5,909 nt of DNA from an uncultured Methylococcaceae bacterium (GTDB taxonomy: Bacteria; Pseudomonadota; Gammaproteobacteria; Methylococcales; Methylomonadaceae), in contig CAJAHC010000399.1 in the NCBI GenBank assembly GCA_903939355.1, positions 1-5,909 of the forward strand, given 5' to 3'. Shown here piece by piece: positions 150-5,618 of this stretch. How positions within the stretch are numbered: the stretch's first letter is position 1; each line of letters opens with the position of its first letter. A program made the position numbers and the translations under genes. The notes beneath the pieces were generated by a model, which searched no databases, was not told the origin of the DNA, and saw only the letters and a list, made by a program, of their open reading frames with translations.

Positions 150-2723
150 ATGTATAACGTAATAACTAGAGTCTTTGTCCTCGTAGTATTAATAACAAGT
201 GTATTTTTCGCTTCTGTTACCTATGGGTTAGGTACTCCTCCGACTGTTTATGGGATTAATCCACCCAATACTACAAACAATGTAACTATTACTAACTCAG
301 ATACGGTAAGCGTTACAGGTACTAGCCATGAAACTGTAGCTGGAATTAGTTCTGTAGCAAATTATACTACTATAAGTAACACTTCAACAGGGACGATTAA
401 CTCCACAATTGGAGGAGTTGGGTGGGCTTATGGCATCTACTCTATGGGTGACTACAACATCATAACCAACTTTGGCATAATTAATGCGAAAACAGAGGAT
501 AGTCCTGTTACTATAGGCGTTAATATTGGGGATGTATGGGATGGAGCAAGTAACGATAACATTCTAACTAACTCCGGAAATATTTATGCCACAACAGGAG
601 TTTATGGTTCGGCTTATGGCATCAGATCCATTGGCTCCAGAAACACCATATCCAACTCCGGAAATATTTATGCCACAACAGGAGTTAATGGTACAGCTTA
701 TGGCATCAGATCCATTGGCTCCAGAAACACCATATCCAACTCCGGAAATATTTATGCCACAACAGGAGTTAATGGTTCGGCTTATGGCATCTATTCCTCA
801 GGTAACGGAAACACAACCAACTCCGGCACCATTAATGCCACAGCGGGCGATAATGGGCGGGCTTATGGCATCGTTTCCGATGGTGACAGCAATATAATAA
901 CCAACAGCGGCACTATCACAGCCAGTGGTGGTGCCGGCTCAACCGCTGTAGCCATTCAAAATTACGGCATCCAAACTAGCCTAACCAATAGTGGCACTAT
1001 TTCAGGCTCTGTTGCTATTGATTCAACTTCCGCAGGGGCTTCTATAGGCAGCATCACTAACTCGGGAACTATCGATGGTGATATCAATATCTCAGGGCAA
1101 GATGTCACCTTTCTGGGTGGCTCAGGCACTACGGTGGGTTCTTTAACCGGAGGAACTATTACCTTAACATCGGGTAAAAACTTGACCTTCGGCTCAGGAA
1201 ATCAGTTGTTAGCCGATAATATCGATGTTGGAACGGGGACAGTCATTAATGAAGGTAGTCTGTATCTTAATTCCACACAGTCTATTACTGGTAATTATCA
1301 ACAATCAGATGCTGGCATTGTAGATGCCAGCGTTGATGGTCAACTCAATGTCTCAGATACCGCTACTCTAGCGGGGACTTTCAATGCCACCGGCGGTAAC
1401 GGCATCAACGGCAACACACGTTGGACTGTCATGACAGCAGGGAATGGAATAAACGGGACGTATGCCAATGTCACCAGTGATTTAGACTTAGTTAACTTCG
1501 CCTTGGCTTATGATGCCAATGATGTGTATATGACCGCACAAGCCAATTACACGTCAGCAGCGACTAATCAAAACCAACAAGCTGTGGCGACTGGCCTTCA
1601 AACCGCTTTCTATAGTACGCCTTCAACAGCTGGGCAATCGGTGTTGGATCAGATTAATCCCATGAGTGCTTCACAAGCACAAACTGCTTTTAATTCATTA
1701 TCCGGTGAAGGTATCTCAGCACAACAAACCGCTAACTTTAGCGCCACTAATTTAATTGTCGATGCCTCACGCCGGCAAGCGAACTACTGGTTAATGGATG
1801 AATGTCAAACCAAAGCATCTGCTAACCAGCCTAACAAATCGCGTCATAACGTCTTACCAGCAAGTTGTGCATCTAGAGACAATAAACGCTTTAGAAGTTG
1901 GCTAACAGGTGTCGGTGCTTCTAACTCATTAGATGGTTCCTCTTCAATGGGTTCTGCATCAGTATCAACAAGAACCGGTGGTGGGGTTGTGGGTTTTGAC
2001 TATGAAGTTAGCTCTCACTTACTGGTCGGCGGTATGGTGGGTGGTACAGCCTCTAACTATAACGTTTCTGCCCGTTCCTCAACGGGTACAGACTCTTCAG
2101 GTCAAGTGGGTCTATACAGTGTTGCCAAGTGGGAGAACTTTTACGTCAATAGCATCTTTAACTACGGTTACTTCAGTGGTGAATCTACTCGTTACGTGAC
2201 GGGTGTCGGCAATACCGCGGAACAAACTGGCACAACCAGTAGCAATGCCTTTACGGGACGTATGGAAGTCGGCTATCGCATGGATCATCCACTGGTTAAT
2301 GTCATGCCGTTTGTGGCCATGCAAGCCACCTCTCTGCAAATGAACAGCTTTACAGAGAGCAATACCGATAACCTAGGGCTATCGGTAGCCGGTAACACCA
2401 CTATGTCAGAACCCGGCTCCTTAGGTATTCAGTTGGATCGCTCTTTTGATGTCAGTGATAAGTGGACTATGTATCCTTTACTGCGCATGGCATGGGTGCA
2501 TGAATTCCAAACCGATCGCTCTATCAATGCCTCGTTGCAAGCACTACCTACCACTAATTGGACGGTCAATGGTGCCAGTGCTGCTTACAATGCCGCTAAC
2601 GTGGGCATTAGTTTCCAAGCCATGAACAAACAAGGTATTGCCATCTTTGCTTCTGGTAATGCAGAGGCCTCATCAACCACTCAAAGTTATATGGGTGAGT
2701 TAGGTGTTAAGTGGCTTTTTTAA
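150..2723 (+). CDS. Type Va autotransporter, repeat-rich passenger with C-terminal outer-membrane beta-barrel
   Basis: An 857-residue surface protein. Residues 1 to about 26 form a Sec signal peptide with a hydrophobic core (VFVLVVLITSVFFASV). The passenger is rich in N, S, T and G. Around residues 107-304 it carries about 28-residue repeats on the theme AYGI...GxxNTIxNSGxI, as expected for a beta-helical adhesin stalk. Residues about 305-480 (for example NYQQSDAGIVD, LAGTF, NGINGTY) resemble the end of pertactin-like passengers. A linker around 525-582 contains SRRQANYW and two cysteines, C552 and C573. From about W584 to the end lies a roughly 275-residue autotransporter barrel domain, the usual family length, ending in GVKWLF with the terminal aromatic typical of outer-membrane barrels. 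The start at 150 is favoured by the signal peptide; the ribosome site is weak (GATGAG, 9 nt upstream). No protease triad was recognised, so adhesion or aggregation is the likely but inferred role. The gene appears monocistronic. Confidence 0.93.
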   Translation: MYNVITRVFVLVVLITSVFFASVTYGLGTPPTVYGINPPNTTNNVTITNSDTVSVTGTSHETVAGISSVANYTTISNTSTGTINSTIGGVGWAYGIYSMGDYNIITNFGIINAKTEDSPVTIGVNIGDVWDGASNDNILTNSGNIYATTGVYGSAYGIRSIGSRNTISNSGNIYATTGVNGTAYGIRSIGSRNTISNSGNIYATTGVNGSAYGIYSSGNGNTTNSGTINATAGDNGRAYGIVSDGDSNIITNSGTITASGGAGSTAVAIQNYGIQTSLTNSGTISGSVAIDSTSAGASIGSITNSGTIDGDINISGQDVTFLGGSGTTVGSLTGGTITLTSGKNLTFGSGNQLLADNIDVGTGTVINEGSLYLNSTQSITGNYQQSDAGIVDASVDGQLNVSDTATLAGTFNATGGNGINGNTRWTVMTAGNGINGTYANVTSDLDLVNFALAYDANDVYMTAQANYTSAATNQNQQAVATGLQTAFYSTPSTAGQSVLDQINPMSASQAQTAFNSLSGEGISAQQTANFSATNLIVDASRRQANYWLMDECQTKASANQPNKSRHNVLPASCASRDNKRFRSWLTGVGASNSLDGSSSMGSASVSTRTGGGVVGFDYEVSSHLLVGGMVGGTASNYNVSARSSTGTDSSGQVGLYSVAKWENFYVNSIFNYGYFSGESTRYVTGVGNTAEQTGTTSSNAFTGRMEVGYRMDHPLVNVMPFVAMQATSLQMNSFTESNTDNLGLSVAGNTTMSEPGSLGIQLDRSFDVSDKWTMYPLLRMAWVHEFQTDRSINASLQALPTTNWTVNGASAAYNAANVGISFQAMNKQGIAIFASGNAEASSTTQSYMGELGVKWLF
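468..1058 (+). repeat. Degenerate repeat array in the autotransporter passenger, mostly 84-bp period
   Basis: Units begin at an Asn-Ser/Phe-Gly codon set at 468, 570, 654, 738, 819, 903 and 987, with the next unit start at 1059. Spacings are 102, 84, 84, 81, 84, 84 and 72 bp, all multiples of three, so the reading frame is kept. Each unit encodes about 28 residues of the form NSGxI...AYGI...GxxNxI, consistent with turns of a beta-helix. Outer units are diverged at the DNA level; the centre is nearly identical. Confidence 0.85.
570..791 (+). repeat. Near-identical 84-bp tandem repeats (2.6 copies)
   Basis: Units 570-653 and 654-737 differ at only three positions, all within a 9-bp stretch (TTATGGTTCG versus TAATGGTACA). 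The third copy matches from 738 to about 791. At these three sites it carries the base of unit 2 at the first and the bases of unit 1 at the other two. It then diverges at TATTCCTCAGG. Such identity between neighbours points to recent duplication or gene conversion inside the passenger. Confidence 0.92.
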
Positions 2724-3172
2724 CCCATTAAAAAAATTGCTCTGATTTTATAAATGCCGATTATGTGTTTCTAGAAAAATATAAAATATTTTTTAGGCAT
2801 GAAGATTTATTTCAAGGTGGGGGGTATGTTTCCGCAGTGGTATTTGCACAAGTGAATTAGTAGTTTGAAAATTTACAGAAATGTTTGAGCCTACTCGACT
2901 CTTATAGAGACTAGAGGAGGTAAAGCTCTGAGCGGGGGTGGGGCGGTGAGGCAGGGGTGGGGTCAAGGCTGTGCCAGTATATGCTGGGAAAAGTCAGAAG
3001 GAATAAAGATTATCCATTACCTTATATAAAGACCCTCATTGTATTTTAGTTCAATATGACCCTAGTCAACTAGACACTTACTTATTGCGCTAGCAAGATT
3101 ACTCACCAACTGGTCTAATATTGAGAGTAGTTAAAACCTTCTAAATGGCTCGGATTTTTTTGACACCTGTAA
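2724..3172. other. Intergenic region without a convincing gene
   Basis: This stretch separates the convergent ends of the autotransporter and the RTX gene. I see no ORF with a good ribosome site; the longest candidates are under about 20 codons. It is AT-rich at 2740-2815 and then carries several G runs: a G6 at 2819-2824 and the G-rich motif at 2934-2962, listed separately. A small hairpin CCAG-TATATG-CTGG follows the G motif, and a palindrome CTAGT-CA-ACTAG lies at 3062-3073. No canonical intrinsic terminator was found for either convergent gene, so termination may depend on Rho or on structures I cannot evaluate by eye. Confidence 0.6.
2934..2962 (+). repeat. Paired GGGGTGGGG blocks, potential G-quadruplex
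   Basis: The + strand has G5-T-G4, a 10-nt spacer (CGGTGAGGCA), then G4-T-G4. That gives four G tracts of at least four bases with loops of 1, 10 and 1 nt, fitting a G-quadruplex pattern with one long loop. The block GGGGTGGGG occurs twice, 19 bp apart start to start. It stands out sharply from the AT-rich surroundings. Whether it folds or acts in any way cannot be told from sequence. Confidence 0.75.
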
Positions 3173-4168
3173 TTAATAAACATGAATATTATTAACATAA
3201 AGTGTTGTTACGCCTGATAAAATCACAAAAGGTACAGCTTTACCTACTCCAATACCATCAGCATCATAAGAAAGGGTTTGTGTCTTAGGGTTGAAAATTA
3301 AATAGTCATTCTCATCTAATGCTTTGGTGCCTATGACAAAATTATCTGCTCCAAATGCGGTTGAGGAAAGACTTGTAAAAATTGCAGAGTCTAACATTAA
3401 AAAATCCCCTGCTAACCCAGATACAAAATCTAATATCGTGGTTTTATTAGAACCACCTATTTTTGTATTAAAGTCATAATAATCTACCCCAACCCCACCA
3501 GTTAGAGTATTTTTACCTAACCCTCCGTTAATCCAATCATCTCCGATTCCACCACTTATTTTGTCGTTACCATTTTCGCCATAAGTCCAATCAGTTCCAT
3601 TACCACCATAAATTATGTCATCACCGTTACGACCAAAAATGGTATTTTCACCATTAACTCCATATACAGTGTCATTACCAATACCAGCATCAACATAATC
3701 AATACCATTACTACAATATATAGTGTCGTTACCATTATAACCGTTTAATACATTATCGTAGCCAGAGCCAAGATTTGGTGTTACCGCTGTAGCGCTTATA
3801 ATATCATTGCCACTTAAAGCCCAGCTTAACAATGCTCCAGTATTACCAGAATTAACGTAAAGCTCTACTTTTTTAGCATTAAGTTTTAAGCTAGTCATAG
3901 AATATTGACGAATACCACCTTCAAAATAATCGAATCGATTAACTGTTCCGCTCGAAATATCACCATTCTTATATTTAAAAGTACCGTAGTAATCGGCTTC
4001 ACTATATCCATCATAAACCTCAATCAGGTAGGGCGTAGAATAAACTGCCCCAAAAAACCAAGGCATATTATTCATATTAATTGGCTGATAAACCGTAAGG
4101 TTCGCCGTAAAAGCCTTATAAGGTAATAATATGGTTAATAGAGCCAACAGGGATTTAATTATTTTCAT
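3173..4168 (-). CDS. RTX (haemolysin-type) calcium-binding repeat protein with N-terminal signal peptide
   Basis: 331 residues. Residues 1-22 (KSLLALLTILLP core, ending near FTA) look like a Sec signal peptide. Residues about 50-120 form a module often seen before RTX repeats (YYGTFKYKNGDISSGTV, then ALSGNDII). Residues about 134-232 hold roughly ten consecutive nonapeptides of the GGxGxDxUx type, for example GRNGDDIIY, GGNGTDWTY, GGIGDDWIN and GGVGVDYYD. These bind calcium in a parallel beta-roll in this family. The C-terminal region, with TKALDENDYLIFNPKTQTL and YDADGIGVGKAVPFVIL, matches the tail common to type I secreted RTX proteins. No catalytic domain is visible, so it may be a structural, adhesive or surface-layer-like protein (inference). 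The start is well supported: GAGGAG at 4177-4182 lies 8 nt upstream of the ATG. No type I secretion genes lie in the window. A signal peptide together with an RTX tail is unusual. Confidence 0.92.
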   Translation of the reverse strand: MKIIKSLLALLTILLPYKAFTANLTVYQPINMNNMPWFFGAVYSTPYLIEVYDGYSEADYYGTFKYKNGDISSGTVNRFDYFEGGIRQYSMTSLKLNAKKVELYVNSGNTGALLSWALSGNDIISATAVTPNLGSGYDNVLNGYNGNDTIYCSNGIDYVDAGIGNDTVYGVNGENTIFGRNGDDIIYGGNGTDWTYGENGNDKISGGIGDDWINGGLGKNTLTGGVGVDYYDFNTKIGGSNKTTILDFVSGLAGDFLMLDSAIFTSLSSTAFGADNFVIGTKALDENDYLIFNPKTQTLSYDADGIGVGKAVPFVILSGVTTLYVNNIHVY

Positions 4169-4176
4169 GCTTTTTA

Positions 4177-4182
4177 CTCCTC
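4177..4182 (-). promoter_or_regulatory. Ribosome binding site of the RTX gene
   Basis: On the - strand GAGGAG lies 8 nt before the ATG. It fixes the start so that the N-terminal signal peptide is part of the protein, which matters because RTX proteins normally lack one. Confidence 0.8.
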
Positions 4183-4324
4183 GTATGGATTTGTATGTTA
4201 GTCATAATCTAATGAAGCCTTTGCCTGAACAAGGAATGAGAATAAGTGTACTTAATCAACAAAAGTTTTTGTTATTACTCGGCATGAAAATAGTTGCAGT
4301 AAAAATGCAAAAAAAGGCATCCAA

Positions 4325-4369
4325 TTAAGTACCATCATGTATTTTTATATTATGCACTCATGGTATTAA
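4325..4369. repeat. Imperfect inverted repeat downstream of the 91-residue gene
   Basis: Arms TTAA-g-TACCAT (4325-4335) and ATGGTA-TTAA (4360-4369) can pair as 10 bp with one bulged G around a 24-nt AT-rich loop. It lies about 33 bp past the stop codon of the small secreted protein on the - strand. No T tract follows on either strand, so it is not a standard intrinsic terminator. It may be a 3' stabilising structure, a protein site or chance. Confidence 0.35.
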
Positions 4370-4402
4370 GTTATCTATAGCATCAACATAGAGTAGTAGT
4401 TC

Positions 4403-4678
4403 TTATTCCGCAGGTTGTTCTAATATCAAGAGCTTCTCAGCGCCATCAGTTAAATAGTTCTGTGGTTCACCTAGTCCGTTCTCAGGCACTACTGTAGTTA
4501 AGTTGCCTGACCGCATATAGATCGTTGATTCATTAGTTGTTGCGTTGACATCGGTGTAGCCACCTGCACTAGGTGTAATGTAATGGGTTTCCCCTGATGG
4601 TGTGATTATGGATTCAGCATTAGCTTCAGTTGTTAATACTGTGGATAGCAGTAAACCTGCAATTAATAAGTTCTTCAT
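4403..4678 (-). CDS. Small secreted or periplasmic protein of unknown family (91 aa)
   Basis: I do not recognise the family. The protein starts with a clear Sec signal peptide, MKNLLIAGLLLSTVLTTEANA, with an ANA|E signal peptidase I site. The mature part of about 70 residues is polar and acidic, has no cysteine and no further hydrophobic segment, and so is likely soluble in the periplasm or outside. It opens with two related phrases, IITPSGETH and YITPSAGGY, and later has STIYMRSGNLTTVVPENG. Start choice is supported by AGGGG at 4684-4688, 5 nt before the ATG; an overlapping upstream ATG hits a stop after two codons. A possible -10 (TATATT, - strand, 4714 to 4709) lies upstream without a good -35. 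It is on the same strand as the RTX gene, with a gap of about 230 bp, so co-transcription is possible but not shown. Confidence 0.8.
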   Translation of the reverse strand: MKNLLIAGLLLSTVLTTEANAESIITPSGETHYITPSAGGYTDVNATTNESTIYMRSGNLTTVVPENGLGEPQNYLTDGAEKLLILEQPAE

Positions 4679-4788
4679 ATCATCCCCTCGAAATACACAT
4701 AGAGAATAAATATACCTAACAAATGTAAAAACTGCTAGAAATGAAAGAATGGAAGGTGCTGGCAGGAATATCTGTTAAAAACCAATCT

Positions 4789-4809
4789 GGCAATGACCCG
4801 GCAATGACC
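4789..4809. repeat. 11-bp tandem direct repeat GGCAATGACC(C)
   Basis: GGCAATGACC occurs at 4789-4798 and 4800-4809, separated by one C. The 11-bp period is about one helical turn, so a protein could bind both copies on the same face of the DNA. It lies about 20 bp beyond the terminator of the tRNA fragment. Its function is unknown. Confidence 0.7.
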
Positions 4810-4826
4810 TGAGAAATTTAAGGTAT

Positions 4827-4858
4827 AAAAAAAGCCTCACACTTTAATGCAAGGCTTT
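4827..4858 (-). terminator. Intrinsic terminator just downstream of the tRNA-Asn fragment
   Basis: Reading on the - strand, a 7-bp stem AAAGCCT (4858-4852) and AGGCTTT (4837-4831) encloses a 14-nt loop and runs directly into a T tract (4833-4827). It begins 8 nt after the CCA end of the tRNA fragment, the position expected for the original terminator of that tRNA transcript. Confidence 0.8.
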
Positions 4859-4866
4859 CATTTATT

Positions 4867-4912
4867 TGGCTCCCCCGGACGGGCTCGAACCGCCGACCTA
4901 ATGATTAACAGT
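4867..4912 (-). tRNA. 3' fragment of tRNA-Asn(GUU), probable attachment site (att) scar
   Basis: On the - strand the fragment reads the anticodon loop CTGTTAA (anticodon GTT), the 3' anticodon-stem strand TCATT, a variable region, a T arm with stem GGCGG/CCGTC (one G-T pair) around TTCGAGC, then CGGGGGA-G-CCA. That matches the 3' acceptor strand, discriminator base and encoded CCA of bacterial tRNA-Asn. The 5' side is missing: the bases right of 4912 do not pair with the anticodon stem, and neither a D arm nor the partner acceptor strand TCCCCCG occurs to the right. The break at the edge of the anticodon loop is a usual crossover point for tRNA-targeting tyrosine recombinases. It cannot make a working tRNA. 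By orientation the inserted DNA lies to its right and older chromosome to its left. Confidence 0.85.
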
Positions 4913-4990
4913 AGCACTAACGGCTGAGTTTATTCTTTTTAAGTGGAAGATTACTAAGCGCCTTTCTGATTGATATATCACCGTTGCCTT

Positions 4991-5095
4991 AAAACCGAAC
5001 CAATAACGAACCTTTTGTTCTGAAAACCGCCAACATTTGTTTAAAAATTAAATTGAATCAATTGGTTAACAGCATTTTCCGCCGACCGAAAACCG
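4991..5095. repeat. Scattered AAAACCG repeats next to the tRNA scar
   Basis: AAAACCG occurs at 4991-4997, 5023-5029 and 5089-5095, in two cases preceded by G. Related CGAACC words lie at 4996-5001 and 5007-5012. All fall in the gene-free gap between the tRNA fragment and the EF-hand gene. Repeated short words beside a crossover site could be recombinase arm-type sites, but spacing and orientation are not regular enough to be sure. Confidence 0.4.
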
Positions 5096-5111
5096 AAGAG
5101 GGCTCAGATAT

Positions 5112-5618
5112 TTATTTTTTAGTGAAATGTTTGTAAGCGCCCAGTGTTGCTCCAATAGTAGCACCTACTACTGGGCCGATTAGCGGAATGGGGATTGCGA
5201 TCGCGGCTCCAACAACCGCAGCGGTGGCTGTTTCTTTTGCCAAACTGGATGATGCTACCCCCCTTGATACATCTTTTAAAGCACTGACAAAAGCCTCTGT
5301 GGCAATCTTCACATCTTGCTGATCTAATTGACCGTCACCATTTTGATCAAAAACTGATGTTGCGATAGTCGATAAAGTACGACCTGCTAAATTTACAGTC
5401 TCGGTTAGAGCGGGACCAGCAACCGATGCTATATCACCTGTTGTCTGTTCAATACCTTTCGACAAACTTGTTCCTGCTTGTTTTACAGTATTTGCAGTTT
5501 TATCAGCTAAATCAACCGCTGAAGAAACAATAGGGCTGGCTGTCGATGCAATACTTGTGGTCAAGTCGGATACAGCAGACTTGGTTTTCTCTGCAATATC
5601 ACTGAATAAATTTTTCAT
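5112..5618 (-). CDS. EF-hand protein with amphipathic N-terminal region and C-terminal glycine-zipper hydrophobic segment
   Basis: 168 residues; I do not recognise a named family. Residues 1-90 are A/S/T/V-rich with regularly placed charges, suggesting amphipathic helices. They contain an internal duplication with a 40-residue offset: IASTASPIVSSAVDLADKT at 23 and IASVAGPALTETVNLAGRT at 63. Residues 91-102 (DQNGDGQLDQQD) form a canonical EF-hand loop with D, N, D, G and D at positions 1, 3, 5, 6 and 9; position 12 is D instead of the usual E. Residues about 131-162 are hydrophobic with glycines spaced like a zipper (VVGAAIAIPIPLIGPVVGA, then TIGATLGAY), and the end is basic (KHFTKK). There is no Sec signal. 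The pattern suggests a calcium-responsive, membrane-associating protein; pore-forming or colicin-like action is only one possibility. The start is supported by AAGGTGAG 8 nt upstream. The gene lies on the presumed inserted side of the tRNA scar. Confidence 0.85.
   Translation of the reverse strand: MKNLFSDIAEKTKSAVSDLTTSIASTASPIVSSAVDLADKTANTVKQAGTSLSKGIEQTTGDIASVAGPALTETVNLAGRTLSTIATSVFDQNGDGQLDQQDVKIATEAFVSALKDVSRGVASSSLAKETATAAVVGAAIAIPIPLIGPVVGATIGATLGAYKHFTKK

What the first reader, a model, noticed from the sequence alone, without database searches (positions are those of the whole stretch)
4827..4912. Scar of integration in a tRNA-Asn gene: 3' half plus native terminator, cut at the anticodon loop
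The tRNA-Asn(GUU) sequence is intact from the CCA back to the 5' edge of the anticodon loop and then stops abruptly, while a strong terminator remains just downstream. Tyrosine recombinases of genomic islands and phages often cross over at the anticodon loop and leave exactly such a 3' duplicate at the far end of the element. The layout predicts an element extending right from about 4913, with an intact tRNA-Asn at its other end.
Basis: partly seen in the sequence, partly recalled or inferred. Interest (0 to 1): 0.7.

Follow-up and report, generated by a model that had tools for sequence, protein, structure and literature searches.

The report
tRNA-Asn scar between stacked elements
In a bacterium of a methane-oxidising family, a 46-base copy of the back half of an asparagine tRNA gene, followed by a terminator, lies where two mobile DNA elements likely inserted one behind the other; each side carries different short repeats that are predicted to be the binding sites of that element's own integrase.

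Summary
Window 4867-4912 (minus strand) is residues 31-76 of tRNA-Asn(GUU), 46/46 identical to an intact gene in a relative, starting one base before the anticodon loop and followed by a strong terminator. It is an integration scar: in 23 of 29 matching genus genomes the best match begins exactly at 4912. The flanks show more. On the right, 4913-5100 is an arm that recurs beside tRNA-Asn halves in four genomes, with an IHF-like site and TTCRGTWTT repeats, next to differing cargo (TOTE primase-helicase, Leo-like GTPases, a 168-aa protein). On the left, past the terminator, is a pair of direct repeats; such pairs stand there in 12 of 35 tRNA-Asn flanks against 4 of 435 control windows. An element in closed genome G011, bounded by intact tRNA-Asn and half, has near-identical pairs at both ends and an integrase; after its half comes a different pair, the window's layout. 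So the scar most likely separates two tandem elements, not an element from native DNA. No intact tRNA-Asn was found in this 671-contig MAG, and the right-hand element's recombinase is unknown. A known kind of event; the repeat barcode and the right ends without a visible integrase are of interest.

The parts
4867..4912 (-). 3' half of tRNA-Asn(GUU), residues A31-A76 (anticodon loop at 4905-4911); attachment-site scar
   Evidence: 46/46 identity to intact tRNA-Asn of G026; a second exact copy of its 42-nt core in the own genome at C284, a diverged one at C42
4827..4860 (-). terminator hairpin and T-run behind the tRNA half
   Evidence: fold of 4824-4866: -17.1 kcal/mol, z -5.6; not listed by the pattern scan
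4790..4809 (-). pair of direct repeats, period 11: predicted integrase arm-type sites at the left end of the next element (E2)
   Evidence: 9 of 9 repeat score; 18 of 20 positions equal to the pair beside the integrase of G033:C283
4913..5100 (-). conserved right-end arm of element E1
   Evidence: arm plus half: 81-88% DNA identity to the full-length copies in G000, G026 and G033, 70% in G034; alignments
5056..5068 (+). IHF-like site in the E1 arm (consensus recalled from memory)
   Evidence: present in 7 of 8 arms tested; 142-143 nt from the junction in the 6 with an intact junction, 135 in G026:C95, absent in the partial arm of G032
4991..5011 (-). inner tandem pair of TTCRGTWTT-like repeats in the E1 arm (1 mismatch to the pattern)
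   Evidence: pattern search of 35 genomes: 7 of 12 hits are E1 arms; the reversed control pattern gave 7 hits
5082..5097 (-). outer repeat at the far edge of the E1 arm
5112..5618 (-). 168-aa protein, terminal cargo of E1; 70% identical protein beside the same arm in G034
   Evidence: 12 proteins found including itself, none with a Pfam domain
4403..4678 (-). 91-aa protein, first gene of the left-hand element E2 (assignment inferred from position)
   Evidence: relatives in 2 of 35 genus genomes including its own
3173..4168 (-). 331-aa RTX-repeat protein, in the left-hand element or its remnant (assignment inferred)
   Evidence: PF00353
150..2723 (+). 857-aa autotransporter left of the scar; membership of E2 uncertain
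   Evidence: PF03797

Best explanation
The 46-bp block at 4867-4912 is the 3' half of a tRNA-Asn gene that was likely left as the shared attachment site between two mobile elements that integrated one after the other into the same tRNA gene by crossover in the anticodon loop. Element E1 (to the right) ends in the ~190-bp arm 4913-5100. Element E2 (to the left) begins with the tRNA half and terminator, followed by a pair of direct repeats. Shown by sequence: the tRNA half, the terminator hairpin, the arm shared with other tRNA-Asn halves, the repeat pair, and near-identical pairs at both ends of an integrase-bearing element in a related closed genome, whose half is again followed by a different pair. 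Inferred: that the repeats are integrase arm-type sites, that E2 used an Arm-DNA-bind_3 integrase like that of G033:C283, that E1 used a different recombinase, and that the intact tRNA-Asn lies beyond the right end of this contig.
For: Breakpoint exactly at 4912 in 23 of 29 matching genus genomes, with an intact tRNA-Asn in 22 of 28 loci scanned. E1 arm beside halves in G000 (3 places), G026, G033 and G034, with different DNA beyond the arm in the pairs compared, except window and G034, which share the 168-aa gene. Repeat pair after the terminator in 12 of 35 distinct flanks against 4 of 435 control windows; 10 of the 12 start 12-17 nt after the T-run with period 11; 0 of 5 flanks where a tRNA-Arg gene follows directly hold one (score 4-5 of 9). 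G011 element between intact tRNA-Asn and half: left and right pairs differ in 1 of 20 positions, with an integrase between; the flank behind that half holds a different pair (9 of 9), which is the window's layout in a closed genome. All 4 integrase-adjacent right ends examined carry a pair (G011, G026, G033, G002); G026's is identical (20 of 20) to the left-end pair next to its intact tRNA on another contig. Several tRNA 3' fragments lie on one contig in G026:C36, G026:C80 and G028:C13.
Against: No intact tRNA-Asn and no second end of either element was found in this MAG, so neither element is closed. The E2 pair occurs once in the own genome with up to 2 mismatches, so E2's right end is missing, decayed or different. 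No recombinase was found for E1. 23 of the 35 flanks do not hold a pair, among them 3 of the 5 flanks that follow an E1 arm (L007, L037, L038); only the window and G033:C321 do. The three E1 right ends with full upstream sequence (window, L007, L037) gave no pair at 8 of 9 or better in the test that found pairs in the integrase-type right ends; their repeats are weaker.
Confidence: 0.82

Rival explanations
1. Single-element scar as first read: one element extends right from 4913 and everything left of the scar is native chromosome with the native terminator.
For: The half, terminator and breakpoint fit. No right end of an E2 element is seen in this genome, and flanks behind other E1-type halves (L007, L037, L038) hold no pair.
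Against: The left side carries an element-type repeat pair, 18 of 20 positions equal to the one at the integrase-bearing right end of G033:C283. In several relatives tRNA-Arg(TCG) follows tRNA-Asn directly, and there the pair is absent, 0 of 5. The 91-aa gene next to the scar has relatives in only 2 of 35 genus genomes, its own included.
Confidence: 0.11
2. The tRNA half and arm are a dispersed repeat (a SINE- or MITE-like unit) copied as a block, not an integration site.
For: The arm plus half stands at 3 places in the own genome. One arm in G026:C95 lacks the tRNA half, and a partial arm without a half is present in G032:C111.
Against: No common outer boundary on the terminator side: downstream sequences differ. 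Halves with quite other arms (the integrase type) join at the same tRNA position. The breakpoint falls in a known integrase crossover class (PMC4383910, passages read).
Confidence: 0.04
3. Assembly or binning artefact that joined unrelated contigs at a repeated tRNA half.
For: The MAG has 671 contigs and 5% contamination; contig ends fall in or near this repeat in several cases (C284, G033:C388, G034:C218).
Against: The arm-half-terminator order recurs in independent assemblies. G000:C42 and G026:C156 align over 1,888 columns at 93% across the junction, and the G034 contig shares the 168-aa gene, the arm and the first 36 nt of the half with the window.
Confidence: 0.03

Closest known systems
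tDNA-integrated genomic islands with anticodon-loop (type A) sites, as catalogued in Islander (PMC4383910; passages read)
   Same: 3' tDNA fragment in tRNA orientation at the distal end; crossover at the anticodon loop; tandem arrays
   Different: Islander needs an intact tDNA and an integrase in the interval; neither is present on this contig
P4-like satellite elements (label recalled) with an Arm-DNA-bind_3 integrase, as in G011 of this genus
   Same: Left-end repeat pair of E2 is of the same kind and at the same place as in the G011, G026 and G033 elements
   Different: E2's integrase and right end not seen; the E1 arm has other repeats and no integrase beside it
Asn-tDNA island hotspot of Klebsiella pneumoniae with tandem accretion (PMC4891358; passages read)
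   Same: Different islands at asn tDNA, direct repeats from the 3' tDNA, composite islands by tandem accretion
   Different: Different host and cargo; arm-type repeats were not among the passages I read
Tycheposons (tRNA-bordered cargo elements with tyrosine recombinase; PMC10872708, passages read)
   Same: tRNA border, variable cargo
   Different: No recombinase known for E1, so the defining enzyme could not be compared

Membership tests
tDNA-integrated genomic island (type A site) | 3' tDNA fragment, correct orientation, ending at the anticodon loop | tested here: met
tDNA-integrated genomic island (type A site) | intact cognate tDNA at the other end of the element | tested here: inconclusive
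   not found in the MAG; present in relatives
tDNA-integrated genomic island (type A site) | integrase gene inside the element | tested here: inconclusive
   none among the ORFs of this contig scanned, but the elements are not closed. Relatives G011, G026 (cut by the contig end), G033 and G002 have one beside the half
P4-like satellite (Arm-DNA-bind_3 integrase) for E2 | repeat pair after the terminator matching that at an integrase-bearing right end | tested here: met
   18 of 20 positions equal to G033:C283
P4-like satellite (Arm-DNA-bind_3 integrase) for E2 | Arm-DNA-bind_3 integrase gene in E2 | tested here: inconclusive
   closest of 5 own-genome hits, C293, is 32% identical and lies at another site
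P4-like satellite for E1 | integrase gene within ~300 bp of the right-end core | tested here: not met
   a 168-aa gene stands there instead; cargo genes also in C284, C388 and C218
Tycheposon | tycheposon-type tyrosine recombinase with the tRNA border | not tested
   no recombinase available for E1

The most novel reading that the evidence does not exclude
E1 is a family of integrase-less defence cassettes: a ~190-bp arm with an IHF site and up to three integrase repeats is the only conserved part, the cargo is swapped freely (TOTE, Leo-like GTPases, an unknown 168-aa operon), and a recombinase supplied in trans by other elements stacks them at tRNA-Asn, so the tRNA gene works like an integron platform whose cassettes are addressed by the arm repeats.
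Probability: 0.2. Interest if true: 0.65.

Novelty: new member of a known kind. Interest (0 to 1): 0.38.

Why it matters
tRNA-gene islands in metagenome assemblies are easily cut at the very repeat that marks them, so their ends are hard to pair. If the repeat pairs beside the tRNA half are integrase sites, they act as a barcode that pairs left and right ends across contigs and points to the integrase, as the G011 and G026 ends suggest. The E1 right ends would also be a test case for defence cargo that moves without its own integrase in methane-oxidising bacteria.

Tried and rejected
An intact tRNA-Asn in the own genome: a 42-nt 3' pattern, a 5' pattern (its 2 hits are other tRNAs, read by eye as Lys and Thr) and a Ser-Arg-Asn cluster query found none; the cluster query's best hit, on C357, is tRNA-Arg(TCG). 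A 5' half cut short at a contig end could escape these searches.

A recombinase for E1: the E1 pair pattern in 35 genomes gave 12 hits, 7 of them E1 arms; the reversed control pattern gave 7 hits, so the other 5 are what chance gives. None of the 5 loci holds a tRNA; 3 of the hits lie inside ORFs, the other 2 were only read by eye. Twelve own-genome integrase loci on 9 contigs carry no E1 pair, E2 pair, tRNA-Asn core or E1 core. One search listed only part of its hits (7 of 13 for G000), so this is not exhaustive.

The E2 pair pattern in 35 genomes gave 5 hits in 4 genomes and the reversed control 3. Three hits are the window, G033:C283 and G033:C321; those in G006 and G013 were not examined.

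Phage or virus relatives of the arm: 4 pattern scans of viral contigs gave 0 hits; plasmids gave none. Two phage records match only about 50 nt of the tRNA half, starting at or near the same breakpoint; not followed up.

E1 arm outside the genus: 10 of 237 family genomes matched, but 6 of the 10 (G030, G032, G066, G077, G147, G234) are short matches of 21-55 nt, judged chance or partial; G032 and G077 share the outer repeat without a tRNA half. A stricter arm pattern hit 4 of 237 genomes: G000, G026, G032, G033.

A ~160-bp repeat with inverted ends near several halves looks like a MITE and was set aside. The Rfam hit HIV-1_SD is below the gathering score and was rejected.

In one search, flanks with no T-run (L006, L043, cut by contig ends), flanks under 45 nt and duplicate flanks were dropped before the count of 35. 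The script's label 'intact' for L041 is wrong; ARAGORN finds no tRNA there. The G002 end match (same repeat unit, spacing 11 against 12) was seen by eye; the substitution-only scan did not report it. Control windows come from the same loci and the flanks are related by descent, so the count is not a probability. On rechecking, rival 1 was lowered from 0.13 to 0.11 only so that the four odds add to 1.

Full report
What is there. The window is the whole contig C399 of a 3.05-Mb, 671-contig MAG. A relative of the same genus, G026, is a MAG titled 'uncultured Methylococcaceae bacterium isolate Erken-D9_bin-0517': its contig C156 equals record CAIVQX010000156.1. On the minus strand, 4867-4912 equals residues 31-76 of an intact tRNA-Asn(GUU) of that relative over 46 of 46 bases, and a stable hairpin with a T-run follows, although a pattern scan did not list it. 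ARAGORN finds no complete tRNA in the window.

It is an integration scar. Of 35 genus genomes searched with window 4827-5100, 29 match. The best match begins exactly at query 189, that is window 4912, in 23 of the 29; it begins at 173 in G013, at 204 in G029, and runs through the arm in G000, G026, G033 and G034. ARAGORN finds an intact tRNA-Asn in 22 of the 28 loci given to it, mostly in the order Ser-Arg-Asn.

The right-hand side, E1. Window 4913-5100 recurs beside tRNA-Asn halves in the own genome (C284, C42), in G026 (C156, part at C109), in G033 (C388, part at C321) and in G034 (C218); an arm without the half stands in G026:C95. In an alignment of six arms 45% of the arm columns are invariant, among them the fixed positions of an IHF-like site. 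That site is 142-143 nt from the junction in the 6 arms with an intact junction and 135 in C95; it is absent from the partial arm of G032; shuffled arms contain it in 1.4-3.5% of trials. The IHF consensus is recalled. TTCRGTWTT-like repeats stand at about -185, -98 and -87 from the junction, not all three in every copy.

E1 cargo. Beyond the arm the DNA differs between the copies compared, except window and G034. C284 carries a TOTE primase-helicase (PF22548) and a PIN/RHH pair. G033:C388 carries two GTPases with weak Leo-type matches. The window and G034 carry a 168/169-aa protein, 70% identical; the window's copy has weak matches to LeoB (E 0.0002) and to tape-measure proteins, too weak to name it. 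In the assembled bodies of the window, C284, C42, C388 and C218 (0.8 to 4.1 kb each) no integrase was recognised among the ORFs scanned (a 96-aa and a 71-aa ORF were not scanned). In the four integrase-type right ends the integrase starts about 145-265 bp from the core (coordinates). E1's recombinase is unknown.

The left-hand side, E2. Just past the terminator, 4790-4809 is a pair of direct repeats with period 11. Reading the flanks of the tRNA-Asn copies fetched side by side showed such pairs, with different sequences, at the same place. Of 35 distinct flanks, 12 hold a pair of at least 8 of 9, against 4 of 435 control windows from the same loci; 10 of the 12 start 12-17 nt after the T-run with period 11; 0 of 5 flanks where tRNA-Arg follows directly hold one. 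The flanks are related by descent, so this is not a probability, but the repeat units differ (for example CGGGTCAACCC, CACGTTGCACT, CGGGGTAACTC). Of 5 flanks behind an E1 arm, the window and G033:C321 hold a pair; L007, L037 and L038 do not.

Pairs mark both ends of one element. In closed genome G011 an element runs from the intact tRNA-Asn (L050 8174-8249) to a half at 15911, with a primase and an integrase with an Arm-DNA-bind_3 domain. Its left and right pairs differ in 1 of 20 positions. Behind that half comes a different pair (9 of 9): the window's layout in a closed genome. G026 has an identical pair next to its intact tRNA (C108) and next to an integrase, cut by the contig end, on C36. 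G033:C283 has beside its integrase a pair equal to the window's in 18 of 20 positions and to that of its own C321 in 17 of 20. G002 has the same repeat unit at both ends with a one-base difference in spacing (by eye). All 4 integrase-adjacent right ends examined had a pair. I read these as integrase arm-type sites; that the N-terminal domain binds arm-type sequences is stated in PMC2951348 (passages). Binding was not tested.

Mechanism. Most likely an element carrying the tRNA 3' half recombined with tRNA-Asn at the 7-nt anticodon loop, restoring the gene and pushing the old half to its far end; a later element did the same. The window shows one such junction: E1's right end, the old half, its terminator, and E2's left end. 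Several tRNA 3' fragments on one contig are seen in relatives: two on G026:C36, two on G026:C80, and three Asn plus two Arg fragments behind the intact pair on G028:C13. The exact crossover base cannot be placed, because the half and the intact gene share the whole loop.

Limits. Neither element is closed in this MAG. The intact tRNA-Asn was not found, probably lost at the repeat. E2's right end was not found. Whether the autotransporter and the RTX gene belong to E2 is inferred from position only.

Known or new. Islander passages describe the principle, the anticodon-loop class and tandem arrays; PMC4891358 passages describe a tRNA-Asn hotspot with tandem accretion. Among the listings shown by seven paper searches (lists capped at 20) I saw no title on this locus; PMC12924245, on prophages in Methylococcus, was listed and not opened. 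I file the finding as a new member of a known kind.

Noticed in passing
window 558-890: The autotransporter passenger has four tandem repeats of about 84 nt.
   Followed up: no
L156 (G000:C293) 1438-4145: A second autotransporter end, 84% identical over 687 bp to the window's, lies next to an Arm-DNA-bind_3 integrase; between them is what looks by eye like a tRNA-Thr(TGT) 3' half with a terminator and, among several chance-like pairs, a repeat pair: perhaps the same arrangement at another tRNA.
   Followed up: partly
L052 (G028:C13) 7337-18878: Array of decayed tRNA-Asn and tRNA-Arg 3' fragments; a PIN-type gene lies between two Arg fragments and is 85% identical to one in the TOTE element of G000:C284.
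   Followed up: partly
L046 (G033:C231) 1424-5377: DISARM-like genes (DrmB, DrmMII) directly behind an intact tRNA-Asn, with a weaker repeat pair (7 of 9).
   Followed up: no
L040 2443-2599 and 3376-3534, L041 826-984, L007 4883-5032: About 150-bp MITE-like repeat with inverted ends; in L040 two copies flank an RHH/PIN region.
   Followed up: partly
L116 (G000:C357) 7383-7459: In the own genome tRNA-Arg(TCG), which follows tRNA-Asn directly in several relatives, is the only tRNA on its 11-kb contig.
   Followed up: partly
L093 (G032:C111) 1501-1554: Outer part of the E1 arm without any tRNA half; perhaps an element at another site.
   Followed up: no
Phage records ON453895.1 (81-133) and MZ188970.1 (34993-35042): About 50 nt matching the tRNA-Asn half, starting at or near the anticodon-loop breakpoint and close to the record ends; possible phage attachment sites.
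   Followed up: no
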